The notes under the pieces are model-generated. The model searched no databases. It was not told where the DNA came from and was given only the letters and a program-made list of their open reading frames with translations. Of a DNA stretch of 64,000 nt, positions 14,903 to 59,834 are shown one piece after another (the stretch's first letter is position 1; each line of letters starts with the position of its first letter). The DNA lies in the NCBI GenBank assembly GCA_963965975.1, contig OZ014413.1:6331501-6395500 (forward strand), written 5' to 3'. A program made the position numbers and the translations under genes. This DNA comes from Xestospongia bergquistia. Taxonomy: Eukaryota; Porifera; Demospongiae; Haplosclerida; Petrosiidae.

Positions 14903-14949
14903 ATTTTAGCTGTCTTCTCAATTTTCCTCTGATTGTCAGTAGTTCTTGT

Positions 14950-26731: not shown

Positions 26732-26785
26732 CTTTTCACTTAATTGGTCAAATACTAATTACTTGATTGATTGCACGTACACAAC

Positions 26786-31369: not shown

Positions 31370-31667
31370 TGTAATATATTGTAATTGTATATTACTTAGC
31401 ACTTACTTATTGTGTATAATTGTATCTTTTGTTATGTTTGATTTACTGTGTATTTGTTAATAGGTGCTTACTATGTTTCTTTTGTTATAGGTGACAATGT
31501 TAGTTGTGTTAATACTCTTTCTTTTATGCTATGTGTTACTTTTTAGTTACACCTTTCTTTGTTGAGTTTTCTATATAAACTTGCTTGATGTTGTTATTGA
31601 ATATAGAGAGATAGAAAGATTTATTTCTAAATCATATTTTGTGAATTCAGTGGTTTAAGTTACCACA
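31370..31667 (+). repeat. 5' LTR of gypsy-type element 1
   Basis: 298 bp, beginning TGTAATATATTG and ending GTTACCACA. It differs from the 3' LTR (35623-35920) at one position by eye (gaattcaGtgg versus gaattcaAtgg), so integration was recent. Confidence 0.95.
31572..31578 (+). promoter_or_regulatory. TATA-like box in 5' LTR
   Basis: tatataa in the context gttttctatataaacttgc; plausible core promoter of the retrotransposon transcript. Confidence 0.5.
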
Positions 31668-31688
31668 TATTTGGCGACGAGGGTCTCA

Positions 31689-32465: not shown

Positions 32466-32964
32466 ACCCGATGAAGTGGAGTATCCCTTGCATGCTCTCA
32501 CTACAGGCAAAAACCACCCACTTACAGTGAAAGTGAAGATAAATAACGCCGATTTACAAATGGAAGTCGACACAGGAGCTACTCTATCTATAATCAGCAA
32601 AAAGACATACGAGAGGCTATGGCCCACACAAAAGCTGGCTCCGTTGTTAAAGTTCTCTCACGCTACGTTAAAAACGTATACTGGTGAACAGATTAAGGTA
32701 TTAGGGTCTATTGATGTCAATGTGACCTACCAGACTCAAAAGAGACGGTTACCGCTGTTAGTAGTTGCAGGAGATGGCCCATCACTGTTAGGTCGTGACT
32801 GGCTACAGCAGATGAAACTAGACTGGTCGGGGCTATATGCTTTTAGTGTGGCAGGACCAAAGAGCCAGTGGCAAGATGTCATTGATCGTCATCCAGATGC
32901 CTTTAAAGACGAGCTGGGAAGAGTTCAAGGAACTACAGCTAAATTTTATCTCAATCTGGTATAA
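32400..32964 (+). CDS. aspartic protease region of element 1
   Basis: Open in the frame one base ahead of gag. The active-site DTGA triad is at 32569-32580, followed by LSIISKKTYERL and LLGRDWLQQ, a retropepsin. The frame ends at a TAA near 32962-32964, because a one-base shift separates it from the reverse transcriptase frame (about 32950). Its true start is unclear: it may be made by frameshift from gag, or the offset may be a lesion. Confidence 0.75.
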
Positions 32965-34688: not shown

Positions 34689-35589
34689 CCAGAACGTCCA
34701 TGGTCACGGTTGCACGCAGACTATGCAGGTCCATTTTTAGGTAAGATGTTTCTCACCTCGTAGATGCTTACTCGAAATGGCTAGAAGTTATACCTGTGAG
34801 TTCTGCTACATCTCTCTCAACAATTGAACAGTTCAGATCTATATTCTCCATACACGGTTTACCTGAAGTGCTAGTTACTGACAATGGGCACTGCATTTAC
34901 AAGTACTGAATTTGCGGAATTCATGAAGAGAAATGGAGTACGTCACGTTAAGTCTGCTCCATATCACCCAGCATCTAATGGGCTGGCAGAGAGAGCTGTT
35001 CAGACATTTAAAGAAAGCATGAGGAAACAGTCAAAAGACTCTCTCAATACTCGTATAGCTCGTTTTCTCTTTAGCTACCGTATTACTCCTCATACAACAA
35101 CTGGCACTAGCCCAGCTGAACTCTTATTCAGTAGACTTCCACGTTCTCATTTGGACTTACTGAAGCCAACTTTAGCGGGAAGAGTGCTTTAGAAAGCAAG
35201 AAAAGCAGAAAGAAAACCATGATGTTCGTTCTAAAGAGAGAACATTTCAGGTTGGTGATTTTGTATTTATTTGTGATTTTCCAGATCGTAAACATTGGCT
35301 CTCTGGAAAAATTATATCTACTAAAGGTCCATGTTCCTATTTAGTGGAACTTGAGGATGGACGAATTGTTCGACGACATGTTGACCATATTCAAGCATGT
35401 ACATCTAATTCATGTTCACCTCCTACTGATGTACCAGCTCCGTTAAATGGTTCTGATGATGACTTAGCTGATATCTCTATCCCGACACCTCCTTTACATG
35501 AAGATTCATCACCTGTTTCAGTTGAAGCACCCCAACCTACATTACGTCGTTCAACAAGAATTTCTCGACCTCCTGATCGATATTTTTAA
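34689..35589 (+). pseudogene. integrase core and C-terminal tail of element 1, frameshifted
   Basis: Pieces of the integrase catalytic core continue after the TAG, but frames change near 34755, 34885 and 35190. The largest pieces are 34884-35192 (SAPYHPASNGLAERAVQTFK, containing the last catalytic Glu) and 35344-35589 (C-terminal tail ending RISRPPDRYF). Without these regions in one frame, the copy cannot integrate by its own enzyme. Confidence 0.85.
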
Positions 35590-37441: not shown

Positions 37442-40297
37442 TCATCCGGGTATAATGGTCGTCCCAGTATTAACCCACACTGGTGAGTCATTTGGTATTG
37501 GTGGTAATGGTCTTGCTTTGTGTCGGCGGTCGTATTCTTGTTGTTGTTTCTTCTTGAAAGCTTCATTTAATCGGGAGAAATTCCCAATGTATGACCATTG
37601 GGGTTTTAACTGATCTATTGTCTGAGGAAGGTTTGCTCTCAGTTTTCGACCCATACATAACTCAGCAGGACTTAATCCACACCATGACATAGGGGTGCTT
37701 CTATAGACTAGTAGTGACATAAATGGGTCATCTGTCTTGTGTAATATATTCTTCAATGTCTGGACTGTTCTTTCTGCTTGTCCATTGCTTTGTGAAAAGA
37801 TGGGACTACTGGTAATGTGGTCAAATCCATATAGCTTTGCAAACTCGGCAAATTCCAAGGAGCTATATTGAGGTCCGTTGTCACTTCTTACACGCTCTGG
37901 TATACCATGACGAGCAAATACCTTCTTGAGGGCCATAATTATCCCCTGTGATGTAGTTGATGTTAAGCGGGTGATTTCCGGATATCTTGAGAAGTAATCA
38001 ACTACTACCAAATAAATGCTGTTCTTAAAAGTGAATAAGTCAGTCCCAACTTCCTGCCATGGGTATTCTGGTAGTTTGGTAGGGATTAGCGGTTCATGCT
38101 TCAGTGTGAATCGTTTTGTACATTCTTGGCAACTTTTCACTAGCTCAACAATTTCTTTGGAAAGTCCTGGCCACCATACTGCCATCCTGGCTCTTGCTCG
38201 ACATCTTTCAATTCCTTGATGTCCTCGGTGGATTTTGTCCAATGTTTCTTTCCGGAGACTTTTTGGAACTACTATGCGAGTATTATACAGAAGTAATCCA
38301 TCACCAATTGTGAAGTGAGCTTGATGTTCCTGATATTGTTGCATTTCCATGTTCAATTGAGATTTCCGAGGCCACCCCTGCTGGCAATACTTGATAACAG
38401 CTTGACAAATTTGATCAGCCCTTTGTGCCATTCGGTAGTGATGAAGTCGTTGCTTACTGGCAGGTAAGTCGGAAATCACTACTTCCATTAATGACTCAGT
38501 TCTATCTTGTGAGTTCTTGTCTGTTTCTTCCCACTGTGGTGCTCTTGAAAGGGTGTCTGCTGTGTATAAGAGTTTGCCCGGTACATGTTGAATTGCATAA
38601 TTGAAGCGAGTGAGTCGTATCCTGAACCTAAGTATCCTGGGAGGAAGGTTGTCTAATTGTTTTGTTCCCAGTAATGAAATCAATGGTTTGTGGTCTGTTT
38701 CAATCAGAAATTGCATACCTAACAGATATGTCGAAAACCTTTCGCATGCCCAGGTGATGGCCAATGCCTCCTTCTCCACTTGAGCATATCTCTTTTCAGT
38801 TTCAGAGAGTGAGCGAGAGGCATAAGCAACTGGTCTCCACGATTGTTGTTGTTTCTGCAGTAGAACTGCTCCTACCCCATATGAGGAAGAATCTGCACTG
38901 ACCTTTGTTTCTGCTTCCATGTTGTATGGTACTAGTGTTGTGAGCTTTGATAGTTCTTCCTTAATTTGGGAAAATGCTACGTTCTGTGGTGACTCCCATC
39001 TCCAGAGGTTCCTTTTTCCTAGAAGTTCTCTCAGTGGGTGGGTGAGTTCAGCTAATCGAGGTGTAAATTTTCCTAATTGATTCACCATGCCTAGGAACCT
39101 TCTCAACTCTGTGACGTCCTTTGGGGGTTTCATGTTGCTAATTGCATCAGTTTTCTGAGGGTCTGGGTGTACCCCATGTTTGTCAACTACATGACCTAGA
39201 AAAGTTAAACTACTTTTACTAAACTCACATTTTTCAGGATTGAGTGTGACTCCTGACTTCTGAATCCTCTTGAGCACTGCTTCGAGACGGATATCATGTT
39301 CTTCCTGTGTTTTAGCGTACACCAAGATGTCATCAATAAGGCATAATGCTCCCTCTAGTCCTGCCAAGACTTTTGACATCTGCTTCTGGAAATGTTCCGG
39401 AGCACTTGTGATCCCGAAAGGTAGCTTGTTAAAACAATATCTGCCCATTGGCGTTATAAAGGTAGTTAATAGTCTTGACTCCTTTTCCAACGGTATCTGC
39501 CAGAACCCACTGTTAGCATCTAGTTTACTAAAAACAGTGGCACCTGATAATTGAGCTAGAAGATCGTCAATTTTTGGAAGTGGGTGAACTTCCCTGATGA
39601 CGCTTTCATTCAGTGGTCGTAAGTCGACACATATACGGATCGAGCCATTCTTTTTGGGTACTGCAACCATACCAGCACACCATGGTGTTGGTTCGTCCAC
39701 TTTTGATATAACTCCCAGAGACTCCATGCGTTCCAATTCTTGTTGGATTTTACTACGATATTGTAGTGGGACTTGTCTTGGAGTGAACAAGGCATGTGGT
39801 TTGGCATCATCTTTTAATTTGATGGAGTACTCCTCTCCAAATGATCCCAATCCAGTAAACACTGATGGATATTTCTCAAATAGTTGAGTCTTTTGGTCGA
39901 TAACAGCATCAGTTCTTGCAGCTATCTTGAGTGCCATGATTGCTGGTAACCCCAATAAATTGGTCTTCAGCCCCCTAACAACAAAAATGAGTTGCTCAGA
40001 TTGTTTCTCACCATATTTGACTTTTCCCCTAAATTGACCTATAGTTTTAAGTGTGTGATGTGACGGTCCATACAGGATCTTAGATGTTGGTTGTAGGTTC
40101 ACCTTTCTTAGTCCCTGATAATCTTTTTCTGACATTGCTGTCACCTCTGCTCCAGTGTCTACCTTGAACTGCAGCTTGGTGCCATTGACTTCTATTCTGG
40201 CTTTCCAATATTCATTGGCATCTGATATTAGTGTGTCCAAAAATACCGTGTCTAATTCCATTTCATTAGGACTCGAGTGAGTATTAACTTCTCCCAC
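37442..40297 (-). CDS. Pol polyprotein of element 2 (protease, RT, RNase H, integrase)
   Basis: 951 open codons. Protease DTGA is at residues 47-50. The reverse transcriptase has KLDANSGFWQIPL, LPFGITSAPEHFQ and the catalytic box LIDDILVY (the usual aromatic first residue is Leu). RNase H has SADSSSYGVGAVL and ETDHKPL. Integrase has the HHCC region (HRGHQGI...C-x2-C) and a catalytic core with GTDLF, RSDNGPQYSS and the Glu in SNGQAERTVQT, so all three catalytic acids are visible. The start shown is a GTG; the frame stays open further upstream through the zinc knuckles (to about 40570), so the real product is probably a Gag-Pol fusion. Stop TGA at 37442. Confidence 0.92.
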   Translation of the reverse strand: MGEVNTHSSPNEMELDTVFLDTLISDANEYWKARIEVNGTKLQFKVDTGAEVTAMSEKDYQGLRKVNLQPTSKILYGPSHHTLKTIGQFRGKVKYGEKQSEQLIFVVRGLKTNLLGLPAIMALKIAARTDAVIDQKTQLFEKYPSVFTGLGSFGEEYSIKLKDDAKPHALFTPRQVPLQYRSKIQQELERMESLGVISKVDEPTPWCAGMVAVPKKNGSIRICVDLRPLNESVIREVHPLPKIDDLLAQLSGATVFSKLDANSGFWQIPLEKESRLLTTFITPMGRYCFNKLPFGITSAPEHFQKQMSKVLAGLEGALCLIDDILVYAKTQEEHDIRLEAVLKRIQKSGVTLNPEKCEFSKSSLTFLGHVVDKHGVHPDPQKTDAISNMKPPKDVTELRRFLGMVNQLGKFTPRLAELTHPLRELLGKRNLWRWESPQNVAFSQIKEELSKLTTLVPYNMEAETKVSADSSSYGVGAVLLQKQQQSWRPVAYASRSLSETEKRYAQVEKEALAITWACERFSTYLLGMQFLIETDHKPLISLLGTKQLDNLPPRILRFRIRLTRFNYAIQHVPGKLLYTADTLSRAPQWEETDKNSQDRTESLMEVVISDLPASKQRLHHYRMAQRADQICQAVIKYCQQGWPRKSQLNMEMQQYQEHQAHFTIGDGLLLYNTRIVVPKSLRKETLDKIHRGHQGIERCRARARMAVWWPGLSKEIVELVKSCQECTKRFTLKHEPLIPTKLPEYPWQEVGTDLFTFKNSIYLVVVDYFSRYPEITRLTSTTSQGIIMALKKVFARHGIPERVRSDNGPQYSSLEFAEFAKLYGFDHITSSPIFSQSNGQAERTVQTLKNILHKTDDPFMSLLVYRSTPMSWCGLSPAELCMGRKLRANLPQTIDQLKPQWSYIGNFSRLNEAFKKKQQQEYDRRHKARPLPPIPNDSPVWVNTGTTIIPG

Positions 40298-40530
40298 AAC
40301 CTTAGAGTAACAGCATGAACTATAATGTCCTTTCTTGTTACACCGATGACATGTTGCCTCCTTTGCTGGGCACTTGTGTTTTTGATGTCCTTTACCACAG
40401 CGAGAACACTCTGCATTACGTGACTTCGCCTTTTCTCTTCCACTGCGTGGTTCTTTTATTTTACTGAATCTCTTCCCTCCTCTGACTTGGTCTACAGCTA
40501 CATGAGCGCCTGCACCTTGTTCGTCTTTGT

Positions 40531-40998
40531 TTAGTGTTTGCTGCTGCTCCTTGACAGCTTCTCGTTGACGTACACCAGCCTGTCGCGTATCATCTCCTCT
40601 TTCATCGCCCCATACTCACAGTCTTCTGCTAGCTTGTACAGCTCCATAATGTATCGCTCGGAGGTTTCCCCCGGCGCTTGATTACGCCGATTAAAGCGAG
40701 CTCTCTCGAAGATAACATTTTTCCTTACTTTGAAGAAGGATTCGAAAGTTTCGATGATTCCATCGTAGGAAGTCATAGCCTCCTCGCTTGGTACTCCTGT
40801 CGAGTCCAGTATGGCTTGTGATTCTTCTCCAAGGCAATACAGAAGAGTGCTGACTTGCCGTTTCTCGTCTTCTTGCGCAAGCCCAGAGGCGATACGGAAT
40901 TGCTCAAAGCGACGTTTCCACTTTGGCCATTCTTCAGGATTCCTGAAGTTGAAAGGGTCAGGAGGAGAGAGATGTAGTTGGGCCATCGCTGCCACCAT
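40531..40998 (-). pseudogene. Gag-like N-terminus of element 2
   Basis: Starts MVAAMAQLHLSPPDPFNF at the LTR edge (40998) and covers the W..W..RFEQFR and F..FF..R..ARF regions of gypsy-type Gag. The frame leaves family similarity after EEMIRDRLV (~40575) and stops at 40531. Downstream, the pol frame takes over with two zinc knuckles (CSRCGKGHQKHKC and CHRCNKKGHYSSC, ~40330-40415). A segment between the two is missing compared with the element 1 Gag, so this gag is internally deleted. Confidence 0.75.
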
Positions 40999-41181
40999 GT
41001 AGTATTTGACGAAGTTTATCTTTTAACAACTATCACAATTATATTTTATATATCAAATCACAAAATCAGTAACTTAAATAGTAAAGTATACACTCCACAG
41101 ATATAGCACATTAGTACTGTCCTATAACACATTTACACATAAGTTAACACATTTGTAACAATGCTTTACAGTTATGCCACA
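40998..41181 (-). repeat. 5' LTR of element 2
   Basis: 184 bp; followed on the plus strand by GCTCC (41182-41186). It differs from 36973-37156 at four sites. Confidence 0.95.
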
Positions 41182-41276
41182 GCTCCTTTTGGCAGTATTC
41201 TTAAGAAGTGCGGAAGTTTTGCTACCCTCCACTATAGTTTGGTGGCTACCACTGCCGTATTTGCCGAGTTAAAGCA

Positions 41277-41316
41277 GACACACACACACACGCACACAGA
41301 CACAGACACACACACA

Positions 41317-41371
<55 letters not shown>

Positions 41372-41385
41372 ACACACGGACAGAC
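41277..41385. repeat. (CA)n microsatellite
   Basis: A long imperfect CA run with a few CAGA and CGCA interruptions. The plus-strand frame through it (Thr-His repeats) is not a gene. Confidence 0.95.
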
Positions 41386-41420
41386 TACAGTAACCCTCGC
41401 TATGCGCCCACACACAGCGA

Positions 41421-41690
41421 GGTTAACTACATTCCCAGCATGCTTAAAAGAATTGGAATTGGACTAGTTTTCTCATTATTTACAACAATATATTCTGTTA
41501 TAATTCTTGCTTGTAAGGATCATTTTCCTTTTGACACAACCTCATACAAATTTGTTATTATATCTCAAGTATTGTATGGAATAGCTATTGCTTTAATTTT
41601 GCGCATATCTTCAGACTTCAGGATAGCTCAGTCTCCACATGAAACGAGAGGTTTGATGGTTGGACTGTGGTATGCAGCACGTTATGGAAT
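41421..41690 (+). pseudogene. POT-family transporter relic E, C-terminal fragment
   Basis: NYIPSMLKRIGIGLVFSLFT, then ILACKDHFPFDTTSYK and a damaged PTSLEF block (RISSDFRIAQSPHETRG), ending GLWYAARY. Order and orientation continue relic E from 36655. The end is cut by the inverted-repeat element at 41696. Confidence 0.85.
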
Positions 41691-41695
41691 ACAAA

Positions 41696-42075
41696 CTACG
41701 ACAAAATAGGCGTCCAATTCACGATTATTGTATATTCAATTCACGATTATTGTATATTCAATTCACTATTATTGCATATAAAAATTCACGATTTTACCGG
41801 TAATTCAAGATATCGCATATTCAAAATTCAAGATTTTACCGAGAAATTGGCGACTATCATTAAGAATTGCAAATTTCTTATAAATTCTATGAATTCTATG
41901 AATTCGTGAATTGCAATAATCGAGGATTCTCGGTAAAATCGTGATTCGAGACGTGGAATAATCGCTAATTTACAGTAAAATCATGAATTGTGAGATATGA
42001 TAATCGCGAAATTCTGGTAAAAACGTGTATTTTGAATATATAATATCGTGAATTGGACGCCTATTATTGTCGTAG
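41696..42075. mobile_element. MITE-like element (~380 bp) with ~30-bp terminal inverted repeats
   Basis: Left end ctacgacaaaataggcgtcc then aattcacgat; right end atcgtgaattggacgcct then attattgtcgtag. Inside, cacgattattgtatattcaatt is tandemly repeated near 41716-41775, and further short words (ttcacgattttacc, attcaagattttacc) recur. No coding capacity. No clean target duplication was seen. Confidence 0.8.
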
Positions 42076-42344: not shown

Positions 42345-43907
42345 TCAATCTGTGTACTCAATGGATAGACCCATGTCTCTCCTGTATTCTTTTTCTTGTT
42401 CCATATACCTCTCATGATAAAGTGTGTCAGTTTCTTCAGCTATCAAAGGTTTGTAAACTTCATTCCTTCTTCTTCGCAGTTTATAACGTTTAGCCAGTAT
42501 CAGAAAACATATCAGTATGACAAGTACTATTGCACTTATTAATACATAGTAGTAAGGACGTTGACATATATCATTTCCTATACATTTAAAAGGATACTTG
42601 CCATTGATATTAATGACATAGCCGATTCCAAATGCTCCATACCATAGACCAAGTATAAATCCTCTCATTTTATTTGGGGATTGAGCTAAGAAGAATTCTA
42701 ATGATGTTGGTAAAATTAAGGCAAATGCTGTTCCAAGTAAAATTTGAGGGACAATAACAGCTTTGTATAAAGTAATGTGCAAGTGTAGATGATCTTGGCA
42801 AGCAAAAAGGATAACATAATACAGTGCAGAGAGGAAACCAAACATTAGTCCCAGACCAATTCTCTTGAGCATACTAGGAATGCATTTAAAGAAACACGGA
42901 TATATCACGAATACATGAAGTAGAATAAGAATTGATGAAAAAAGAGAACTTAATATATTGCTATAAAATATTGAAGAAATGATTTGGGAATTCTGACCTT
43001 TAGAATTAAATGTATTCCATGAGATTTCTGTTATGCAACATAAACCAATTACACAAATTAGTAATGGTGTTAATTTTAGCACTGTTTTTACATCCTCTAT
43101 CTCATCCTCAGAGAAAGGTCCACCATACTTTTCCTTACCTAAGTCCAATCGTGAAGGGTTGTCCTCTTCCCAGTTAATGAAGGCGCTGCGATTTCGGGGG
43201 TACTTATTCTTCCAAGCATAGTTGAGTACTCTAACAATTAGTTTGACTGGATTGAAAATGTGAGGTGTAGTGTCTAACCAATGATTGAAGAGAAAGTTAC
43301 TAATAATGACTGTAGACACGGCCACACCAGATATTGCATAGGACACAATCATATACTCTTTAATCACAATCTGTCCAAGTTCAACAATTACATAAACCAT
43401 AGGAATGCACACTGAATGCCAATAAATAATAGCACTGAGTTCATCAGTGGAAGACTCTACTGATTGATCAATACTAAATTGTACAATATTGGACCGAATA
43501 CTGCAGTACCCAATTATTAGAAGAAGATAACAAAAAGCTACTAAAAATAAATGAAGTGGATAGAAAGAAAGATATACACTAACAATGATAATCAAACCTC
43601 CAATTATCCAGGCAACAAATAGTATATAGGTCCCAGTAATAATAGTTTTATATCGACCTATCTTTATGTCAGCAAGTAGGGCAAAGAAAGGGAATGAAAG
43701 AAAAGTTAAGCAATATGTTATGTCAAAGAAAATATAAATTTTTCTGTTATAGTCAACAGAACTGTTAAAGTAACTGGATTGTATAGCACTTCGAAGTAGT
43801 AGCACATGACCATACATCAAAATATCCCAAAGAATAATTAACATTACAGACTTTGAAGGGATACATTGAACTTTTCTCTTGCAACAACTCAACATTTTTC
43901 TGTTCAA
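42345..43907 (-). CDS. POT/PTR2-family (SLC15-like) transporter, copy B
   Basis: 520 residues, no intron, start MNRKMLSCCKRK; a second Met aligns with the start of copy A. It has the same motifs as copy A: LLADIKIGRYKTIITG, RSNIVQFSIDQ, GGPFSEDEIEDVKTV and PTSLEFFLAQSPNKMRGF, with about 12 membrane segments. From about residue 75 to the end it is nearly identical to copy A. The stretch from the end of TM1 through TM2 (about residues 33-74) is clearly different. This gene lies in duplication copy 2. Proton-coupled solute import is inferred from the family; the substrate is unknown. Confidence 0.8.
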   Translation of the reverse strand: MNRKMLSCCKRKVQCIPSKSVMLIILWDILMYGHVLLLRSAIQSSYFNSSVDYNRKIYIFFDITYCLTFLSFPFFALLADIKIGRYKTIITGTYILFVAWIIGGLIIIVSVYLSFYPLHLFLVAFCYLLLIIGYCSIRSNIVQFSIDQSVESSTDELSAIIYWHSVCIPMVYVIVELGQIVIKEYMIVSYAISGVAVSTVIISNFLFNHWLDTTPHIFNPVKLIVRVLNYAWKNKYPRNRSAFINWEEDNPSRLDLGKEKYGGPFSEDEIEDVKTVLKLTPLLICVIGLCCITEISWNTFNSKGQNSQIISSIFYSNILSSLFSSILILLHVFVIYPCFFKCIPSMLKRIGLGLMFGFLSALYYVILFACQDHLHLHITLYKAVIVPQILLGTAFALILPTSLEFFLAQSPNKMRGFILGLWYGAFGIGYVININGKYPFKCIGNDICQRPYYYVLISAIVLVILICFLILAKRYKLRRRRNEVYKPLIAEETDTLYHERYMEQEKEYRRDMGLSIEYTD

Positions 43908-43939
43908 ATGTCTTCTTGATTTCCTCTGACTGTTAGCAC

Positions 43940-44160
43940 TGCTTGTTATTGCTATTTTTGTTTACAATAATACTTTGGCTTTACTTTCAGTGTTATCATT
44001 ATTATTTCAATTGTCAGTTACCATAAATTGATTTATTTACAATAATCAATAATTTGATAATAACTGTTTGATATATTGCTACATTTACTTGTAGTTTGAT
44101 AAACTGGTAATGTGTTTCAATAGCAATACAGTATGGTTAGCAGTACAAAGATATTACGTA
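43940..44160. repeat. single copy of the upstream unit found three times at 14950-15915
   Basis: Contains ttgtttacaataatactttggctttactttcagtg (in two halves of 20 and 15), the ataattgatt block and tacagtatggttagcagtacaaag. Only one unit precedes transporter B. Confidence 0.75.
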
Positions 44161-46521: not shown

Positions 46522-47745
46522 TCAACGAGAGGGGTTGACACTTACTGTACATCCATTGATAATCCATTTAATAGATGCAATGGTTACATCTCCTTTTTCA
46601 AGAGATACTTGCTTGGGTTCATATTCAGAGTAGCCAGCAATAATCTCATAAAGCACAGATAGACGGAAAAAACTGTTAGAGATTATTTCCAATAACTTTA
46701 ATAGTCTGCTCAACATCATCTCGTTTGGATTAAAAATATTGATGTAAGCATTAGGAAATAGCCAGGGAGATTTTTTGTTATAAAACAGGTTGATTGGAGA
46801 AGGAGTCAGTTCACTCTGATTCCTTGTAGATACCTTTACATGTATTCCTTTAGTAAGACAAACAAGATAGAGGGTCACTCCATCATGGATAGCAGGGTAA
46901 TTGGCTAAAAGGAATGGTCTACCTTCTACATTCCAATCTTCAAGGACTATGTCACCCACTGTTAATCTCTGTTGATAAGTTGGTATAGTATGAGTATCGT
47001 ATATTGATTCACGAACTTTATAAACTGGAGTTAAAGATGATGTTTTAAAATTCAAGGTTCTCTTTGAACCATCAAGTTGTTGAATATAAACTGTCCATGC
47101 ACCTTTCCAATCACAGTTCAATCTTTGATAGCAAACTTTACTCATAAATTCTTGAGAACTTAAAGCTGGAACATAAAATGATCTTTCTATTGATATCATA
47201 TCATTACGATGTGGTATTTCAAAGCTGACTTTTTTTAAAAAGGTAACTGTCATCGTACATCCATCAATAATTGCAGAACATTCTTTTAACTTAAGCTCAG
47301 ACATATCAGTTTTGATAATAGTTCCATCAACAGCCAAAATATGATCGTAATCTTCTTGAAAACCTACTTTTCTACTAATATACTTGCGTAATATAGAAAT
47401 GGTCCAACTATTTAGTTCACTCTTACGAATCTTCACACGTACATTCACTTTACTATCAGGTCGGTATACATTAATTATAAAAGGCTTTCTTACAAGACAT
47501 AATGCCACACCATTATCCATTCCTTGGCATTCAACAAGTAGTTTACCTTCTGGTAGTGGTATTTCTTGACAATAAAGCGTCTGCTCACTAACAGGTATGT
47601 TTGTTTTCTTCTCCACTTCTTGTTTGAGTTGAGTAACAGTAGATTTGTAGGGGAAAGAAAGTAAGAAAGGCTCTTTGATATCATCACAAATTATTATATT
47701 CCAATAAATATCAGGAGTCAGCGAGGCAACGGATTGGACAGCCAT
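46522..47745 (-). CDS. tandem ubiquitin-like-domain protein (four UBL folds), intact copy
   Basis: 407 codons without intron, start MAVQSVASLTPDIYW. By pattern it holds four ubiquitin-like folds: UBL1 about 14-88 (ending MDNGVALCLVRKP), UBL2 about 88-172 (ending IIDGCTMTVTFLKK), UBL3 about 217-310 (IHDGVTLYLVCLTKG) and UBL4 about 310-405 (ending SIKWIINGCTV). Each ends with the D/N-G-x-T/A-L/M-x-L/V last strand of ubiquitin. No C-terminal Gly-Gly is visible, so it is probably not conjugated like ubiquitin but acts as a multi-UBL adaptor. A GTAAGT donor-like site (46541-46546) close to the end leaves open a further exon. It is the working partner of the broken copy at 20137-21414. Confidence 0.75.
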   Translation of the reverse strand: MAVQSVASLTPDIYWNIIICDDIKEPFLLSFPYKSTVTQLKQEVEKKTNIPVSEQTLYCQEIPLPEGKLLVECQGMDNGVALCLVRKPFIINVYRPDSKVNVRVKIRKSELNSWTISILRKYISRKVGFQEDYDHILAVDGTIIKTDMSELKLKECSAIIDGCTMTVTFLKKVSFEIPHRNDMISIERSFYVPALSSQEFMSKVCYQRLNCDWKGAWTVYIQQLDGSKRTLNFKTSSLTPVYKVRESIYDTHTIPTYQQRLTVGDIVLEDWNVEGRPFLLANYPAIHDGVTLYLVCLTKGIHVKVSTRNQSELTPSPINLFYNKKSPWLFPNAYINIFNPNEMMLSRLLKLLEIISNSFFRLSVLYEIIAGYSEYEPKQVSLEKGDVTIASIKWIINGCTVSVNPSR

Positions 47746-49656
47746 GGATACACTCCATTAACACTCTAGCCTCACTTGGAATGTTATTAAAGTGGTTATC
47801 TTAGGAATGCGAGGCTGACTTCAACTATGCCACTATTAAGGTATCAGATAGCCACACCTTATTAAAGTTATTTGTGGAGGGCGGAGCTGCAGTTGCATAC
47901 ACAAGGGTGTAGGACAAAACATTCTATCGTTTAGCTGATATGCTAAAAATGATAGCCAATTCATTTCAAAAAACTTGTTTTATAAATGTAATTGATTGCT
48001 TTTCATCCTTTCTTAAAAAAGCATGTTGAAGCTTGAAATTAGAATCATACTTTGTGTTTTTCAAAGATTGTTATTATAGAATAATATATTGTAGTATTAA
48101 ATCTTTCCTATAAGGAAGTCATATATTATGTTGAATGATATTTATTGAGCTGCTCTAAGAAGTTTGTTTTAGTTCAGTTAATAATAATGGACGGCTGACG
48201 TAGTAAAATTGTTTGAGATATTTTTTCATCTAAAACAATGTTTTGCATAATATAAGTATATGAATGAATCAATTTTGCTTTATGTAGTTTTATATCTCTG
48301 GTAGGTATAATGGTTGCTGAGACTTGTAAGTTCAAATACATTTATCTGTAAATAAAATCATAAATACACAAGGTCCTTGTAAATCACTTTTTATTATGTA
48401 TAAGTTGTATATGTTAGTTTTTAGTGTTGATGCAATTTGTCATATTACATATACTCCATCATATGTTGATAATGCTACTATTAAAACAGGAGCACCACTA
48501 ACATTGCAGAAGAAATGATAAAGGCCAAGTAATGGCACCTCAACCTATGGTACTTCTGTTTCAAGAGGCAATATACACTTCTGGAGTTTTTAGACCATTG
48601 CCAGCATCTTTCCTAAATGATCAAGGACACTACCTCAGACTGTATTCTTGAGAGGAGAAACCTATACCTATCTTCTCTAGAATTTCTCTATTGGAATATA
48701 GAAAGGAATCGAAACAAGTATTCATACTGAATATAATTAATCACCTCAATAATACAAACACCATATTTGTGTAGGGTGTTGTTTTACTATTCTTCTATGG
48801 AACTGTTGTGATACCTACTGGGTGCTTTCTGTTTGAATGATAAATTTCTGAAGGTTCCAATCTGGGTAGAATGTGAACTGAAGTAAGTGCTCTGAGCAAA
48901 ATATCATTAAATGTATTTCAAAATGTCTATGGTGTTGTTAACTTTACAATTATATTTTAAGCTGACAAATATAATTGTTAATGTTTACTAGTCAAGTAGT
49001 ATGTTAATTGTTACAGAACAATATTTTAATAAAATTTAAAGATTTGATAAATAAATGTACTAATAAAATAAATTTTTGAATAAATATGATTATGTGAGCT
49101 GTTTTTAATATTGGTCATGTATAAAATGTGTTATCAGTCCAGACTATAACGTTCATAAATATACATTTTTATCTTTAATGGTATGTTTGTCCTTTTCATA
49201 ATCAAGTTACCTTAAAATTCTATTGCTTAGAAGCTTTAAATTTAAGGGTATTACATAAGTAAGGAAAGTATCAGCAATTCATTTAAAAGGCTAGCAAATG
49301 CAGACAGTATTCCATTCGGTATTTAAGTCTTTAATATATTGAATTTAACTTGACAGGAAGTATCTCTATTGATAGACTTACAACATAGATTATTCTATAT
49401 CATATTTAAATTGTAAGACCTTTGTGTACATCCTGGATGCCTTTAATTATTACTCTACAAAATTGATAAAAATGAAAAAAAATTTCTAGATCTTGGATAG
49501 CTAGATATAAAATTATAACCACATTATAATACTATATATACGAATAAATAATAATTGCACAGAGTACTGACTATTTGTATTTTGTACCTTCACTGGTAAA
49601 TCTGGCATTAACATGAGTATCAGTAACTTTTTTACTGCATTTTTTACACAGACACT

Positions 49657-52580: not shown

Positions 52581-52906
52581 TTATCCATTACCTTTATATT
52601 TTGACATTATTTTGTCAGCTAGGTCTTGTCGATTTAAACTATCATCTCTCAAAATATCCAAGAAAACTATGAAGGCACTAACATTGTGTTTGACATGATC
52701 CTTAAGATCATCAAGAAGTAGGTCAAGACGATCTGCACTTGTATCTCCTGTTTTCTTGTCTTTTATAATTTTGTAAACATCCTCAGAAATAATTTCTTCT
52801 GAAACTAGTCTTCTTGCTAGAACAATGGGTTCAATAGTTGATTCAACAATAGCACTGGTACATTTAACTAAAGCTCGTCTAGCAGCATCAGAGCTCAGAG
52901 TATCAT
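52581..52906 (-). other. CARD exon (last exon)
   Basis: LSSDAARRALVKCTSAIVES, then PIVLARRLVSEEIISEDVYK, then DRLDLLLDDLKDHV and FIVFLDILRDD follow the CARD six-helix pattern (L..L...G/E.I......I......R...LL..L). Stop TAA at 52581-52583. It is open and undamaged, although it lies downstream of the TAG at 54690. Confidence 0.8.
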
Positions 52907-55900
52907 CTATATAGTGCAAAGACATAACATGTTATTATTATTAATACATTAGAAAGATCACCTATAAGTCAATATTTATTATAATTATCTTCTAGTCAGA
53001 TGAATTAACAGTCTTGGTAATAATAGTATTACTATTACTATTATTATTATAGTGATGACAAATCTAATACTACATATATCACTTGAAATGTAAATACTCT
53101 GAGACATTAGCTTCACTGTTAAAAAAAAAGAAAGTAATATTTTATTACTACAAATATCCTTTCATTATAGTTAAAGAAAATATTTATATAAATAAAGGAT
53201 ATTAAGTAAAACTATTAAACAACTCCTCATAAGCAAAATTGATTGTTCCATCAATAATTTCACAGACCTGATGTTAAATGTGGACCTCCAACTAGATCAT
53301 CTTCATCAATACTAGATGAACCTGAAATATAAAGTAATACTATGAAATAACAACAGAATAAAGATGTTCAATAAATCTCTTCATATAGTTTAAAGGTATT
53401 AACAATAAAAATTCATGTATTCTATAAACTTACATTAATGTGTATTATCATGTACTAGTGATCTATTGACTAGAATATTAGGTTGACTATTAGCTGATGT
53501 TTTACTTTCATCATCAGATACTTAAACACCCTCAATAATTAATGGATATTGAAGACTTAGAAATTTAGAAAAATGAAATGTCCAAATACTTAATGTAGCT
53601 AATTTTTATTAATGTTGTACCACAAAGAGAGTCATACTGTAGTGTAATAATTACAAGGACAAAACTATAGGCCAAGTAAGTGAATATATTAAGTCAATCA
53701 ATTACTACGTTATTAATTAAAGACATATATTATAAATATCAAACAACAATATTCACTTTTAGCATTTTCTGTTCCACTTGCAGACTGTCTTGTAACAGCA
53801 GCTACATGTACTACAATTAAGATTATAATAAAATAATAATTATATGTGTATCAGTTATTACCAAGTGATCGTACTATATAAATTTTTTGAATGAAATCTC
53901 CTTCGTTACTAATACCTCTCAAACTAATACCATATTGAAGTACTGGGACTGTAGTATTACTAGGAATAGCAGATATTGTGATTAAGCAAGATGGAAACTG
54001 CGGAGGGGTACATGCTCCATAAGTGTCTACAGCTCTTCGATGTATCTACAAATGGAGTCATATATAATACACAAACATAATATACTGTCTAGTCTACTTT
54101 AGTGGGATAGGAATGAGGATATACACTCCATCCTTGACAGGATCGTTCTTGCTCTTCTCCAAAAACTAACTCAATATATCCATTTTCCTTTAAAAATTTG
54201 AAGAATACTGTGACATCTTTCTTAGCGGTTGGTAATGAAGTCTCTATGTACTGTTAAGTAATGTCAAATCAGTCATTTTATAGCAACAATGTACCTTTAA
54301 AAGAGCATCTAGATGTTGAGATACAAGAAATGTCATTAGCCATTCAGTTTGAGATTCTACCTCATACACAACCTGACCTACATATAAGTTGACTGGAGAA
54401 TGTCCTAAAGACACATCTACCATAATATATGAAAAAAATGTTGCAATTATGTATACCTTGTTGGGCTTCCAAATCTGTGTGAGCCTCAACAAAATTAATA
54501 TTATTGTCATCAAAATGATGTATCTCTATCATATTATAATAATAATAAAATTATAATACATTTACTCTAGATAGAATAAAGTGAATTTTTACCTCTTGAA
54601 GCATGTGTTTCTAAACTTGTTTGAGTGTCCACAAATTGTGCCTCATCATCAGATGACGATGACAATATTTCTTGTTGGTCAACATCACCCTATCCAAAGA
54701 GCCATCTTATTGGTGTCATAAGAGCTTTAATAATTCCTTTGATAGAGAACTTGGTAAGATTAATACTGCCATATTGGTTACCAGGATAGAATTGTCCTCC
54801 TTCTTCTAATTGCATTTTATAAGGGAGATTAGTTTGATACAGATCAGCTGTAACAAAACTCAAATAACCAGTGTGTTCTTGTGTCTCTATTGACACACAG
54901 TGTTGAATAGATAACTGGACTGGTTTAAGGAGTGCTTTGGAAACAGAAATAGCATAAACTGCACTCACTAACATTGTACCAGAGGGACACTCAAACTCTC
55001 CTCCTACAATTGCTGCAATAGAAACCTCACAAGTTTCTCCAGGAAGTATAGTTCCAAGACATACATTAATTCTCAGTCCATACTCCTCCCAATTTAATAG
55101 GGAACTATGTTCTCCTTGGATTAAGAAAAGCTTTTTATCAGCTATATGAACACCAGTACCTTCAAGATACTCCAACTTGTCTAAAAAAATAATATCAATA
55201 CATGACAATAATTATACTAGTGACATACCAAAAGAAGGGATGAGATAGTTAAATTGACATTCAACATCTTTGGTTACCACTTCAAGTTGAACATTTGAAT
55301 CTTCATCATGGACTATTTTCTTTGTTTCAGTAAGTTCATTTAGTCCTTTATATTTGGAAACAAAAAATGGCAACATAAAATTAACACAAACTTGGCAATA
55401 TATAGTATTGACTTAACTACCAATTAGTCTTGTAAGTGAATACAATTACAAAATTGAATTTATGAATAAACAAAAACCAATAATTTATTTTGGAAGACAC
55501 AAGTTTACAGTGAAACACTGACTGAGGCTACAAAGATTGTATAATTAGCAGTATGTCTGTGAAAAATTATAAAATGCTAGAAGTATAAGTTAATAGACAC
55601 GGAAACAAGCTGGTGAGAATATTTGTTTAATGGTCAATTAATTAATTATTTAATTATAATTATAATTATTAATTATAACTAATAATATGTAGTTAAGGTT
55701 AATGAAATATGTTGATTAGTATATGCTTTGGCAGTTAAAGGTGTGATTTAATTTTATTCATTGCTTTCAATTGTTGAACACAATAGTAAAATGACATGAA
55801 GTGACACACATATTATATCTTACACACATATTATGATATGTACATATATATATATGACATATAATGTGTGCTATAAAATGATTTTATGACTACCTAGTAT

Positions 55901-58900
55901 ATTGTATAAGGTAGGTTGTAAAAAAAGTAACTTTAGGTTCAATGTTATAAAAAAGAGGTCAGCATGATTTAATATCTCATGGTTGAAACATCCAAAATAT
56001 GTAATGATTAATTTTTATTCACCAACATTATTTAGTGAATTCACATATTAATGGAAGTAATTAAATTAGCCTATGTATACATTGCAGCATACAATACTAT
56101 AACAACATTTTTGTGGTAAGTACAATGTATTATAACATACCAGAAATGACATCTTTCTTGCCAATATGAAGCAGAGCATCTTCAAGTTGTGTCAATGTAC
56201 CTCCTTTTATAAACCACTCCCCTAACAAGCATTTCATTTGTTCAGTAGAATCTCCTTTATTTCTGATATCAGTTAGTACAGACTGATCTATATTAAGTTG
56301 ATGACCCAGTAGTTCCCAATTCTCTTGTACTGGTTGTAGAACAACTGCCAGTTTGTGAAGATAACTAACAACATCTGTGATATACGATAAATAAAGTAAT
56401 GAACTGTTATATTTACAATAATAACAAACCTGTAGTCTTTTGAGGAATCATAGGTAAGTTATGCTGTTTATATTCTTCTAGTTGTATTTGGAGTGTTGTT
56501 ATGATCTCCTCTTTCTCTTTAGTAACAATGCTTAGTTTACGAGTGAGTTGAGCTATATAGCTATCTTTCTGATATAGTATATCAAGATGACTCACTATAG
56601 TAGGTACCACATAATACATAATAGATATCTCATTATCTGTCACTCTATGTCTTATTATGTGTCAATTTATTGAACAATTTGTCCTTTTATTTGTCCATTC
56701 TTTTAGGCATCCCCCAACTATTAAACTATCTGTCCATCAATTGATACACACATTTATTTCTCTATCTCTTAATGTATATATGAATATATTTTAATATTCT
56801 ATTAATCCATCCATCCATTCATACTTCCATTGGTCCACTCATTTAATATTCCATCTGATTCCATTAATCAACATGTCTATTATGCATTCATCTTTTGTCT
56901 TTTAATATCTATCCATTCATCTTTCCAATGGATAAATAACAAAATGTTATACAGACAGATGGACATGGATAAATGTGGAATAATAAATGGTCAAATAGAC
57001 AAAGGGATAGAATGATAGTGAATGAATGGATGGATGAATAAACAGAAGAATGGACAGATAGGGACACAGCAATATCCACTCCTTTGACCTTATAATGGAT
57101 GGATGGATGGACTGTCATAAAAAGACATCAAACATAAAGAAGGTGTGTCCACTATATACCTATTATCCACACATCTACTTTACTAAATAATTACCTACAT
57201 CAAAATAGTTAGGTTACCTTGTTGTCTATCTTGTTGAGATTCTAGTTCTAGTAGTCTTTCTTGAAGACTTTGCATGTTTTGTTGAGCAAATAAAAGATCA
57301 TCTTGATAGTTAGTTTGAAGACCTATCTCCTTAGTTGACAAGTTGTCTTCAGTTGGTTTTGTTTGTTGTTGTTCTATCCATTCTCTCCTTACTTCTGTGA
57401 GTTGTTTTAGTACCCTTTGTTGGTAGTTATAAGTTGAGATCAGTTCATTAGAGTCTAGCACAAATCCTACTGACCAATGATTATCATTGAGGACTATATG
57501 AGAAAACACAAGAGTACAAGCATCAGTAGAAAATGTTGTAGTCTACTATTAGTACATCATGTATGGAAGTAATAATACTATAGTAAATTATAGTACTTAA
57601 TGAACACTACAAAGAGTTATAGTGCTTATAATACATAGAGTATTATCTCTTATGATGAATATGTGGGTGCCAGTAGTACATCAAACCAATTAACTAGTAT
57701 ATCTAATTATGTCTACTATGTATACGACATCTCCTAATACATATAAAAAATATACAGAAGTACTGTGACATCAATTGTGTATTTCTCTCATGAAATTAAT
57801 GTGGTTTGTACATGTAATAACTTACTTACCTAGTTCTATTAACATTGTTATGTTGGGATCTGTGACACGAGCACCATCAAAACTTATTGCACCTCCTACT
57901 ATAACTAACCATACACAGTGTGGTCCCATCATGTAGGTTGATAGAAAGTGGGCACATCTCTCAGTGACAGAGTCAGGTAGATTAATCTGTGGTATGTAGA
58001 AATATAAATATTATTACATTATTAAGTTTTAATATTAAACACAAGAGATATTACAGTATAGTATCTTTAATGTTATCAAATTATAAATATAATGTTATAA
58101 GTATACAAATTATCAAAATGGTATAATATAATAAAACATTGTGTAATTATTACTAACTCTCATTGTTAAGATACTGTATGAGACATGTCATTTATAATTA
58201 ACACTTCTACTCAACTGATACAAATTATAATAGAACTGATATACCTTTGTCCACAACTTATTGTTAATATCCAATATCCAGCAATCTTTTAGTGTTTTGT
58301 TATCATTATCTAATCCACCTATCACCACTAATATAGTTGGTATTGATCTAGTAATAATACTGGCAGCATGAAGGTATCTTTCTTCTGGCCATTGCACTAT
58401 TAGGTCAGGTTTATGGATAGTTTGCCAGTGCTAGATATAGACAAATGAACTCAACTAACACTCTTTACAACATGTTATCAGTCAGGGTATAAATGATAAT
58501 ATAACATACCAATGTCTGGTTGATGATGTCCACTATATATACAGTATTGCTTGTAGTGTCATCAACTATACCAATACCACCAAAGATGACTGCTCTGGTA
58601 TTATGTATCATTTCCATAACAAAGTTATTATTTGGTGGCATACACTGTCCACTGATATCAGGTATTGTCCATTCATCTGAAAGTAAAACAAACAAAGCAT
58701 TCATCATCATATTGCATCATAGTAGTAATTTTAGTCATGATCAGTGAAACGACAGTCTGTTAGTACAACAATATTATTAATATCAACATTAGCTGATCAT
58801 TATGGTTATTACTGTAAATACTCTACTAAAATAACTTCATAAGCAATGTAGGTAACAGGTATATACAATATATAAGTAGTTATATAGTGATTAATTTGTT

Positions 58901-59834
58901 AGTTTCTCAAGAAACTTTGGCCACATGACTACTGCTAGTCAATTACTTTCATATAACCATTCATCATACAATAATTATAAGTAATATAAAGTTCTGCTGT
59001 AGTGTTTATTACTTTTATTAAGTTAGAAAGCGCAAAAAGTTATAGAATGAATAGGTGGAGTAGTGTGTAGTAATATTTACAGATATCAAAACAACAGGTG
59101 AAATATTTAGATGCCACAACACAATAGCAGTACTCTATGATAGTGATATGGTGTCCAATAGTATGATACAATATATTAATGTACTTACTTGTGGATATGT
59201 TATATAGGTTCTGTTCATTAGTACGAACTATACTACTGGTTAACTGAATATACTGAGCTTGTGGTAGTTTTATAGAGGGTGGAGATCCTGCACCTCCCAC
59301 AACTAGAAGATAATGTACTCCTTCCTGCGCAGAAAACATCATACAACAATAGGCTCTCCTCATTACTGGTCTCCTATCATCTGTTGGTGATATCTGTGTC
59401 CAGGTTAGACTGGAAGTATCTAGTTCATTCAGACTATTATGGTAACAGTTGTCATGACGACACCATCCTCCAAAATAATAGATCTTGTTGTTCAATGTAG
59501 TACTAGAATACCTGTGCACTCCTAGAGGTGGATTACCTCTAGTTGGTTTAGTGTCCCATTTACCAGAGGTAATATTGAAGACTTGTACTTGAGATGTGAG
59601 TCTCCTTTTCTCATCATTGTTGTGTAGTTTAGGTAAGTTTGGTTGATCCCCACCCCACAAATATAGACTGTCACCAATCACTTGAGTGTGATGAAAAGCT
59701 CTTACTTCAAGTTTGTATTGTCCTGTAGAGAATGATATTTATTATATGTTACGATGAGATATAATTATATGGTAATATACGACTATATAACAAGTGTAGA
59801 TATTGCACTAACCTGAAGATATGTCAGAGGCCAT
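52581..59834 (-). CDS. Kelch - coiled coil - Death - ZU5 - UPA-like - CARD protein (17 exons)
   Basis: Exons in coding order: 59813-59834, 59189-59722, 58510-58676, 58245-58430, 57830-57986, 57218-57493, 56430-56636, 56141-56374, 55229-55345, 54593-55180, 54457-54525, 54295-54416, 54098-54250, 53862-54045, 53757-53810, 53268-53321, 52581-52906. All have GT donors and AG acceptors and add up to 3,450 nt in one frame. Start MASDISSGQYKLEV. Residues ~1-355 carry five to six Kelch blades (WGGD, YFGGW, VVGGAG, IFGGIG, VIGGLD, IVGGA); ~356-516 coiled coil; ~517-594 Death domain; ~640-796 ZU5; ~853-1005 UPA-like, weak; ~1042-1149 CARD. Death and CARD domains recruit partners by homotypic contacts in apoptosis and inflammation. 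An in-frame TAG (codon 797, 54690-54692) interrupts it. The exon chain is my reconstruction. Confidence 0.75.
53456..53524 (-). other. possible alternative (poison) exon between exons 15 and 16
   Basis: After the AG at 53525-53526 (aag), VSDDESKTSANSQPNILVN and LVHDNTH read in phase 1, then TAA, then a strong GTAAGT-type donor 1 nt later. Including it would end the protein before CARD; skipping it keeps the frame. It resembles the Ser/Asp-rich neighbour exon (SSSIDEDDL). Confidence 0.35.
53862..54525 (-). other. linker and UPA-like exons (11-14)
   Basis: Exon 11 (54457-54525) repeats the acidic linker of the exon 10 tail: FVEAHTDLE versus FVDTQTSLE. Exons 12-14 encode a mixed alpha/beta region with YEVESQTEWLMTFLVSQHLD, VTVFFKFLKENGYIELVF, GWSVYPHSYPTK and SCLITISAIPSNTTVPVLQY. 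Its place between ZU5 and a death-fold domain suggests UPA, but residue-level similarity is weak. It could be a domain without a name. Confidence 0.5.
54693..55180 (-). other. ZU5 domain with C-terminal Phe-Ser pair
   Basis: NWEEYGLRINVCLGTILPGE, then CPSGTMLVSAVYAISVS and LLKPVQLSIQHCV, follow the ZU5 pattern (G-x-x-L-x-I-P-x-G, L/V-S-x-V-Y/V, K-P-V-x-L-x-I-x-H). The last strand, GSINLTKFSIKGI, has Phe-Ser at codons 778-779 (54744-54749), followed by an amphipathic stretch, KALMTPIRWLFG, then TAG. In PIDD1, NLRP1 and CARD8 autocleavage occurs at a Phe-Ser bond at this point of the ZU5 fold; the upstream catalytic His is not assigned here. Confidence 0.75.
55346..56140. other. long intron of the Kelch-Death gene, nothing recognised
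   Basis: 795 bp between the Death exon and the pre-ZU5 exon, with an imperfect palindromic AT run near 55640-55690 (taattaattatttaattat..). No extra exon recognised. Confidence 0.6.
56141..56374 (-). other. Death-domain exon (exon 8)
   Basis: 78 codons, phase 1 on both sides. VVLQPVQENWELLGHQLNID, then LTDIRNKGDS, then CLLGEWFIKGGTLTQLEDAL match the Death fold: Trp in helix 2, LG..L, late W and the DAL helix 6. One exon equals one domain. Confidence 0.85.
56430..57493 (-). other. coiled-coil exons (6 and 7)
   Basis: Heptad-like, Gln/Glu/Leu-rich: QNMQSLQERLLELESQQDRQ in exon 6, and SYIAQLTRKLSIVTKEKEE then LQIQLEEYKQ in exon 7. Probably mediates oligomerisation. The intron between them (56637-57217) is long and holds (ATCC)n/(GGAT)n-like repeats in inverted orientation. 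Confidence 0.75.
56641..57115. repeat. degenerate (ATCC)n / (GGAT)n repeats in inverted orientation
   Basis: ccatccatccattcat at 56808-56822 and gaatgaatggatggatg near 57020-57037, atggatggatggatgg near 57096-57111. They lie in the intron between exons 6 and 7 and can pair in the transcript. Confidence 0.75.
57830..59834 (-). other. Kelch-repeat region (exons 1-5)
   Basis: Kelch blades with the double Gly and following Trp: SLYLWGGDQ, KIYYFGGWC with LTWTQI, LLVVGGAGS, AVIFGGIGI with NTVYIVD, ILVVIGGLD with DINNKLWTK, and WLVIVGGAI. A Kelch propeller usually binds a protein target, so this is the likely recognition end. The last blade exon changes phase (0 to 1), which starts the series of symmetric phase-1 exons downstream. 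Confidence 0.85.

What the first reader, a model, noticed from the sequence alone, without database searches (positions are those of the whole stretch)
52581..59834. Kelch-Death-ZU5-UPA-like-CARD protein: a candidate undescribed immune or cell-death architecture
Seventeen exons picked by GT/AG borders join into one frame of exactly 1,150 codons, which is unlikely by chance. The resulting order combines a Kelch propeller (target binding), a coiled coil, two death-fold domains and ZU5. ZU5-UPA next to a Death domain is known from PIDD1 and UNC5, and ZU5-UPA followed by CARD from NLRP1 and CARD8; I know of no described protein that adds a Kelch propeller with both Death and CARD. Function as a sensor/adaptor is inference.
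Basis: partly seen in the sequence, partly recalled or inferred. Interest (0 to 1): 0.88.

Follow-up and report, generated by a model that had tools for sequence, protein, structure and literature searches.

The report
Sponge Kelch–Death–ZU5–UPA–CARD gene, nonsense-interrupted copy
A probable sponge gene joins a Kelch propeller to the ZU5-UPA-CARD module that human NLRP1 and CARD8 use to trigger cell death; it belongs to a large family in this genome with relatives in another sponge, but this copy has a stop codon before its last domains.

Summary
The domain order is real; the open frame is not. On the minus strand, exons between 59834 and 52581 encode Kelch, a probable coiled coil, Death, ZU5, a UPA-like domain and CARD. 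An in-frame TAG (54692-54690) follows ZU5; of 21 other ZU5 loci inspected, 20 stay open past this point. Joining 17 exons includes the TAG; only an unproven 111-nt intron avoids it (18 exons, 1,095 aa). UPA exons beyond the TAG have dN/dS near 0.2, so the stop is recent, bypassed or an assembly error.
The order recurs: at least 27 same-strand Kelch-Death-ZU5 arrays, 12 (window included) with this CARD type. Amphimedon has Kelch-ZU5-UPA-CARD gene models. A predicted structure of an Amphimedon relative matches ankyrin and NLRP1 ZU5 and UPA and caspase/Apaf-1 CARDs; the window's CARD exon models as a CARD. At the NLRP1/CARD8 autocleavage position all 123 gap-free aligned rows have Ser or Cys, nearly always after Phe (window: TKF-S). 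I infer an autoproteolytic, NLRP1/CARD8-like death switch with exchangeable sensors and C-termini. The window copy is mosaic, with a junction in its last intron.

The parts
59813..59834 (-). exon 1, start ATG (MASDISS)
59189..59722 (-). exon 2, first Kelch blades
   Evidence: Pfam Kelch; at least 150 genomic matches (capped list)
58510..58676 (-). exon 3, Kelch
58245..58430 (-). exon 4, Kelch
57830..57986 (-). exon 5, end of the Kelch region
57218..57493 (-). exon 6, probable coiled coil (by eye)
56430..56594 (-). exon 7, probable coiled coil (by eye)
56141..56374 (-). exon 8, Death domain
   Evidence: PF00531 31.5 bits; 72 genomic matches
55229..55345 (-). exon 9, linker to ZU5
54693..55180 (-). 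exon 10 up to the stop: ZU5 domain
   Evidence: PF00791 0.0088, below cut-off; 19 of 19 alignment members match; fold shown for an Amphimedon relative
54741..54755 (-). TKFSI: candidate F|S autoproteolysis site at the end of ZU5
54690..54692 (-). in-frame TAG; of 21 other ZU5 loci inspected 20 stay open past this point
54671..54781 (-). hypothetical 111-nt GT-AG intron that would skip both the TAG and the F|S site
   Evidence: no transcript evidence
54593..54670 (-). exon 11 (continuous with exon 10 in close paralogs), Ser/acid-rich linker
54457..54525 (-). exon 12, linker; weakest exon call, not matched in paralog L057
54295..54416 (-). exon 13, UPA-like domain part 1
54098..54250 (-). exon 14, UPA-like domain part 2
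53862..54045 (-). exon 15, UPA-like domain part 3
53757..53801 (-). exon 16, linker
   Evidence: similar ORF piece in L059
53268..53321 (-). exon 17, linker
   Evidence: similar ORF piece in L059
53139..53190 (-). mosaic junction: upstream DNA matches the L010/L059 copy, downstream DNA the CARD copies on C4 and C1
52581..52906 (-). exon 18, CARD and TAA stop

Best explanation
The window holds one member of a large, modular sponge gene family: Kelch propeller (sensor or target binder), coiled coil and Death domain, then a C-terminal cassette of ZU5, acidic linker, UPA and CARD, the order of the FIIND-CARD cassette of NLRP1/CARD8. Intact members most likely work as follows (inferred steps marked). 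Kelch and coiled coil bind a ligand or target (inferred). ZU5 cuts its own chain at Phe|Ser/Cys, leaving the two halves associated (inferred from the conserved site). Removal or rearrangement of the N-terminal half frees UPA-CARD, whose CARD recruits a CARD partner such as a caspase and starts cell death or inflammation (inferred). N-terminal modules vary between relatives and C-terminal exons are exchanged between copies (shown by sequence for this copy's CARD exon). The window copy itself carries a nonsense codon, the 18th codon after the cleavage-site serine. It makes either a truncated Kelch-coiled coil-Death-ZU5 protein lacking UPA-CARD or, if a 111-nt intron is used, a 1,095-aa protein lacking the cleavage site. 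As assembled it cannot make the cleavable CARD-bearing form.
Confidence: 0.55

Rival explanations
1. The window copy is a decaying pseudogene: a recent nonsense mutation removed UPA-CARD, and the rest will drift. It says nothing about function; only paralogs matter.
For: Of 21 other loci inspected, 20 stay open where the window has TAG. Damaged copies occur: L013 has a TGA inside ZU5 and L025 three stops. Linker exon 11 shows no constraint (dN/dS 0.51-1.55 on 30-31 codons; private changes 0 synonymous to 4 nonsynonymous).
Against: All 16 introns of the fused model are GT-AG and no other stop is present before the last codon. UPA exons downstream of the TAG keep dN/dS 0.17-0.22 against five copies, with 12 synonymous to 4 nonsynonymous private changes.
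Confidence: 0.4
2. The truncated product is functional: a Kelch-Death-ZU5 protein without UPA-CARD that acts as a regulator or decoy of full-length paralogs through its coiled coil and Death domain.
For: An open frame of 782 aa ends just after the complete ZU5, and ZU5 is under constraint (dN/dS 0.16-0.21; private changes 9 synonymous to 5 nonsynonymous).
Against: Constraint downstream of the TAG shows that the UPA exons were needed until recently; premature stops upstream of several introns usually trigger mRNA decay (general knowledge).
Confidence: 0.2
3. A 111-nt cryptic intron (54781-54671) skips the TAG and gives a non-cleavable 1,095-aa Kelch-Death-ZU5-UPA-CARD protein.
For: GT-AG borders and frame fit exactly; downstream UPA exons are constrained.
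Against: The intron would remove the end of ZU5 including the F|S site present in all aligned genome rows as F-S or F-C; close paralogs keep this stretch open as coding; no transcript evidence.
Confidence: 0.15
4. The ZU5-UPA-CARD cassette is a scaffold without autoproteolysis, like UNC5 or ankyrin; F-S/C is kept for folding only.
For: The residue before Phe is variable (K, D, H, Q, E in the genome rows) and helper His/Glu were not identified; UNC5b is a ZU5-UPA protein (passages).
Against: The position after Phe holds only Ser or Cys in 123 of 123 gap-free rows while both neighbours vary; in CARD8 the residue before Phe matters little, and UNC5b has Leu at the Phe position.
Confidence: 0.35

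Closest known systems
NLRP1 and CARD8 (FIIND-CARD proteins)
   Same: C-terminal order ZU5-UPA-CARD; F-S at the ZU5 end; domains of the Amphimedon relative's model match NLRP1-DPP9 and CARD8-DPP9 structures
   Different: No NACHT, LRR or PYD in the Pfam scan; instead Kelch, coiled coil and Death at the N-terminus; long linker between ZU5 and UPA; Lys, not Ser, before the Phe
PIDD1
   Same: ZU5-UPA next to a death fold; autocleavage at HF/S (passages)
   Different: PIDD1 has LRRs, two ZU5 domains and a C-terminal Death domain; here Kelch, one ZU5, Death upstream of ZU5, CARD at the end
UNC5 and ankyrins
   Same: ZU5-UPA-death-fold order; ankyrin gives the best structural matches for ZU5
   Different: UNC5 is a membrane receptor and ankyrin an adaptor (general knowledge); UNC5b has Leu instead of Phe at the cleavage position
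Amphimedon queenslandica uncharacterized Kelch proteins (P0023, P0028 = LOC105313890, P0111; P0001 = LOC105313470)
   Same: Kelch, long middle region, ZU5, linker, UPA-like domain; C-terminus named CARD by UniRef in P0023, P0028 and P0111
   Different: No Pfam Death domain in the eight Kelch-cassette proteins scanned at E up to 0.1 or 1 (P0001, P0002, P0023, P0024, P0026, P0028, P0029, P0054); P0001's C-terminus has no CARD or death-fold match; 30-50% identity
TRADD-N and FIIND fusion proteins of marine invertebrates (PMC8195603, passages only)
   Same: Lineage-specific shuffling of death-fold, ZU5/UPA or FIIND and other modules, including a large Amphimedon expansion of TRADD-N
   Different: 'kelch' has 0 occurrences in that main text; the unifying domain there is TRADD-N

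Membership tests
FIIND-CARD (NLRP1/CARD8) | ZU5 domain | tested here: met
   PF00791 in 19 of 19 alignment members; window 0.0088, below cut-off; fold match of the Amphimedon relative
FIIND-CARD (NLRP1/CARD8) | UPA domain after ZU5 | tested here: inconclusive
FIIND-CARD (NLRP1/CARD8) | F-S dipeptide at the ZU5 end | tested here: met
   Window TKFSI; Ser or Cys in 123 of 123 gap-free rows, 17 protein rows with a gap left out; motif from PMC3210808 passages
FIIND-CARD (NLRP1/CARD8) | C-terminal CARD in the same open frame | tested here: not met
   CARD exon present and CARD-like, but an in-frame TAG at 54692-54690 precedes it in the window copy; the frame stays open there in 20 of 21 other loci inspected
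FIIND-CARD (NLRP1/CARD8) | autoproteolysis of the ZU5-UPA unit | not testable with these tools
   needs expression
NLR (NLRP1) | NACHT and LRR domains | tested here: not met
   Pfam scan of the 1,095-aa model at E up to 1 lists none
PIDD1 | LRRs, two ZU5 domains, C-terminal Death domain | tested here: not met
   No LRR, one ZU5, Death upstream of ZU5
Kelch-repeat proteins | Kelch propeller above curated cut-off | tested here: met
   PF24681 124.2 bits against cut-off 50
Death-domain proteins | Death domain above curated cut-off | tested here: met
   PF00531 31.5 bits against 22.6

The most novel reading that the evidence does not exclude
Demosponges own a large family of autocleaving, CARD-releasing death switches of the NLRP1/CARD8 kind, with Kelch, COR, ankyrin, nucleoside-phosphorylase or helicase modules as interchangeable sensors and exchangeable C-terminal domains. 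The release-by-N-terminal-loss principle of NLRP1/CARD8 would then be as old as animals, and the Ser/Cys alternation at the cleavage position would be natural use of two nucleophiles.
Probability: 0.35. Interest if true: 0.87.

Novelty: new variant of a known kind. Interest (0 to 1): 0.7.

Why it matters
FIIND-CARD sensors are known from vertebrate NLRP1 and CARD8; passages of a metazoan survey mention FIIND-CARD for human and fish NLRPs (PMC11508797), and another paper reports FIIND fusions in invertebrate TRADD-N proteins (PMC8195603). A ZU5-UPA-CARD cassette in sponges with a nucleophile kept at the cleavage position would place the mechanism near the root of animals and make its origin directly testable. 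Exon-level exchange of sensors and C-termini resembles a diversifying immune repertoire.

Tried and rejected
CARD-caspase idea: window-type CARDs on C11 lie about 1.3-2.9 kb upstream of caspase-family domains on the same strand at three places. In the two loci read the caspase-like frame has its own early ATG and seems to lack the usual His/Cys motifs (by eye, motifs recalled), so I do not claim a fusion gene or a partner. A further exon after KYKG was considered because the codon abuts a GT; the other 11 CARD loci end 3 or 17 codons later and the following DNA matches the window in 9 of 11, so I keep the TAA as the end. I first took the C-termini of L057, L059 and P0001 for death folds by eye; Pfam supports this in none of the three, so I call them unidentified. 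PDB sequence-profile searches for CARD, ZU5 and UPA found no significant relative. Pfam UPA: no match in 10 members or in the genome (controls silent, so uninformative). Homologue searches name only Amphimedon among the listed hits; other hits are unnamed, the candidate limit was reached each time and the last list shows 120 of 379, so absence elsewhere is not shown.

Counting limits: one search used coordinates typed by hand, 71 of 72 Death rows and only part of the 150 Kelch, 150 ZU5 and 138 CARD rows, so its tallies are lower bounds. One search inspected 22 of the 30 loci fetched. In one search, 2 of 38 loci (L001, L025) gave no row, two places appear twice, 17 of 104 protein rows had a gap at the site, and related paralogs are not independent.
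Full report
Setting. The window is C3:6331501-6395500 of a 146.5-Mb genome in 21 contigs. All named hits listed by the homologue searches are from the demosponge Amphimedon queenslandica, mostly at 30-50% identity to the window protein, so the genome is most likely another demosponge. No call names the species.

Checking the observation. On the minus strand, exons with GT/AG borders and compatible phases run from ATG 59834 to TAA 52581. The translation contains Kelch (PF24681, 124.2 bits), Death (PF00531, 31.5 bits) and sub-threshold ZU5; the C-terminal fragment has a sub-threshold CARD. The frame is not open throughout: after ZU5 it reads NLTKFSIKGIIKALMTPIRWLFG and then TAG (54692-54690). 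Fusing exons 10 and 11, as the paralogs do, gives 17 exons and 1,133 codons with the TAG at codon 783. Using a 111-nt GT-AG stretch (54781-54671) as an intron gives 18 exons and 1,095 aa, at the cost of the end of ZU5.

Is the order one gene? One search inspected 22 of 30 ZU5 loci. One is the window and one (L025) has stops inside ZU5; the other 20 stay open past the position of the TAG, although one of them (L013) has a TGA earlier in ZU5. L012 has Tyr-Gly where the window has TAG-Gly, so a single base change suffices. Two paralog loci were read through, C1:6111700-6119700 (L057) and C4:6235700-6242900 (L058). Both match the Kelch, coiled-coil, Death, ZU5 and UPA-like exons in the same order, L058 only weakly in UPA (29%); L058 ends in the same CARD, L057 in another domain. 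Exon 12 of the window was not matched in L057. Pairing hand-typed coordinates, 28 of 71 Death hits have Kelch upstream and ZU5 downstream on the same strand (27 if one with Kelch 8 kb away is dropped), and 12, window included, also have this CARD type. Single exons have many matches: 150 ZU5 and 150 Kelch (capped lists), 138 CARD, 72 Death, 65 for UPA exon 15.

Constraint. Against five close copies, ZU5 of the window has dN/dS 0.16-0.21 (private changes 9 synonymous to 5 nonsynonymous). UPA exons 13-15, after the TAG, have 0.19 and 0.21 against the two nearest copies (dS 0.26 and 0.23) and 0.17-0.22 against the other three; private changes are 12 synonymous to 4 nonsynonymous. The CARD exon has 0.18-0.44 against ten relatives. 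The short linker exon 11 shows no constraint (0.51-1.55 on 30-31 codons; private changes 0 to 4). So the UPA and CARD exons were selected as protein for most of their history, and the TAG is young, bypassed, or an assembly error. These are pairwise counts and cannot date the TAG.

Mosaic. From 55623 to 53190 the window matches the L010/L059 copy (82.6% over the longest stretch, then 74%). From about 53130 to 52409 it matches the CARD exon and 3' flank of the C4 and C1 CARD copies (82-84%). L059 has similar pieces to exons 16 and 17 but then another C-terminal frame. The junction therefore lies at about 53190-53139, in the last intron. L044 on C14 matches across it (53361-52415, 80.8%), so the junction is not unique to this copy. 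The first Kelch exon is closer to the C4 copy (87.9%) than to L057 (82.7%), whereas ZU5 is closer to L057 (87.3% against 70.6%), so the gene is mosaic elsewhere too.

Cleavage site. Passages of D'Osualdo et al. 2011 (PMC3210808) state that CARD8 and NLRP1 cut themselves at SF/S at the end of ZU5, that Phe and the second Ser are needed, that the residue before Phe matters little, and that UNC5b has Leu at the Phe position. In the family alignment the same place reads x-F-[S/C]. Own genome: 36 of 36 rows from 38 loci given (34 distinct places; KFS 12, DFS 6, HFC 6, QFS 5, EFS 5, DFC 2). Proteins: 87 gap-free of 104 rows, with Phe 84, Tyr 2, Pro 1 and Cys 76, Ser 11. No residue other than Ser or Cys occurs at the second position, while both neighbours vary. 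In the P0034 model Phe140 is in a loop and Cys141 opens a strand. Cleavage itself is inferred. The His and Glu that help in CARD8 were not located.

Sensors. Amphimedon relatives carry the cassette behind Kelch (P0001, P0023, P0026, P0028, P0054), a sub-threshold COR match (P0008), a nucleoside phosphorylase domain (P0011), helicase (P0036) or ankyrin repeats (P0049), or nearly alone (P0034, P0047). Two further Amphimedon proteins combine Kelch, COR and a Death annotation (P0109, P0110). No Pfam Death domain was found in eight Kelch-cassette proteins scanned, so the five-part order with an internal Death domain is shown here only in the window's genome.

Mechanism. The best-supported reading for intact members is an NLRP1/CARD8-like switch: N-terminal sensing, self-cleavage after Phe, release of UPA-CARD, and CARD signalling to a CARD partner. 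Shown: domain order, predicted folds, restricted nucleophile position, constraint, exon exchange. Inferred: ligand, cleavage, release, output. The genome has 99 caspase-family domain matches, but no specific partner was found. As a lead seen only in a search listing, the Kelch protein KEAP1 is reported to bind DPP9, the regulator of NLRP1 and CARD8 (PMC11773481).

Literature. Open-access searches for kelch + ZU5 + death (6 papers), sponge + kelch + ZU5 (2), Amphimedon + FIIND (2), NLRP1 + CARD8 + ZU5 + invertebrate (1), and broader ones, list no paper that describes this architecture by title and abstract start. Passages of PMC8195603 report FIIND and UPA-ZU5 fusions among TRADD-N proteins; passages of PMC12909245 mention NACHT-Zu5 genes in early animals; passages of PMC11508797 mention FIIND-CARD for human and fish NLRPs. 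Subscription journals and preprints were not searched.

Verdict. The value lies in the family rather than in this copy.

Noticed in passing
window 31659-35589 (+) and 37442-41022 (-): Two retroelements that look like Ty3/gypsy type (zinc knuckles, reverse transcriptase and integrase visible by eye in the ORFs). Described only.
   Followed up: no
window 13352-14905 (-), 25179-26758 (-), 42345-43961 (-), fragment 41143-41709 (+): Repeated copies of a multi-pass membrane protein that resembles a peptide transporter by eye.
   Followed up: no
window 20893-21426 (-) and 46522-47757 (-): Two related ORFs that look like ubiquitin-like repeats by eye.
   Followed up: no
Amphimedon protein P0027: Four UPA-like domains in one protein that also has a Death domain annotation.
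   Followed up: no
C11:6404200-6407500 (L063) and C11:6452700-6455900 (L062): Window-type CARD exons followed by a caspase-like frame whose usual catalytic motifs seem changed by eye; many caspase-family matches cluster at C11:6.28-6.47 Mb.
   Followed up: partly
C14:2016746 (L044): Matches the window across the mosaic junction, so this CARD junction is shared with at least one other locus.
   Followed up: partly
L057 about 5560-5885 and L059 (reverse strand, about 835-1170): The closest ZU5 copies end in a related helical-looking domain of about 100 aa without a meaningful Pfam match.
   Followed up: partly
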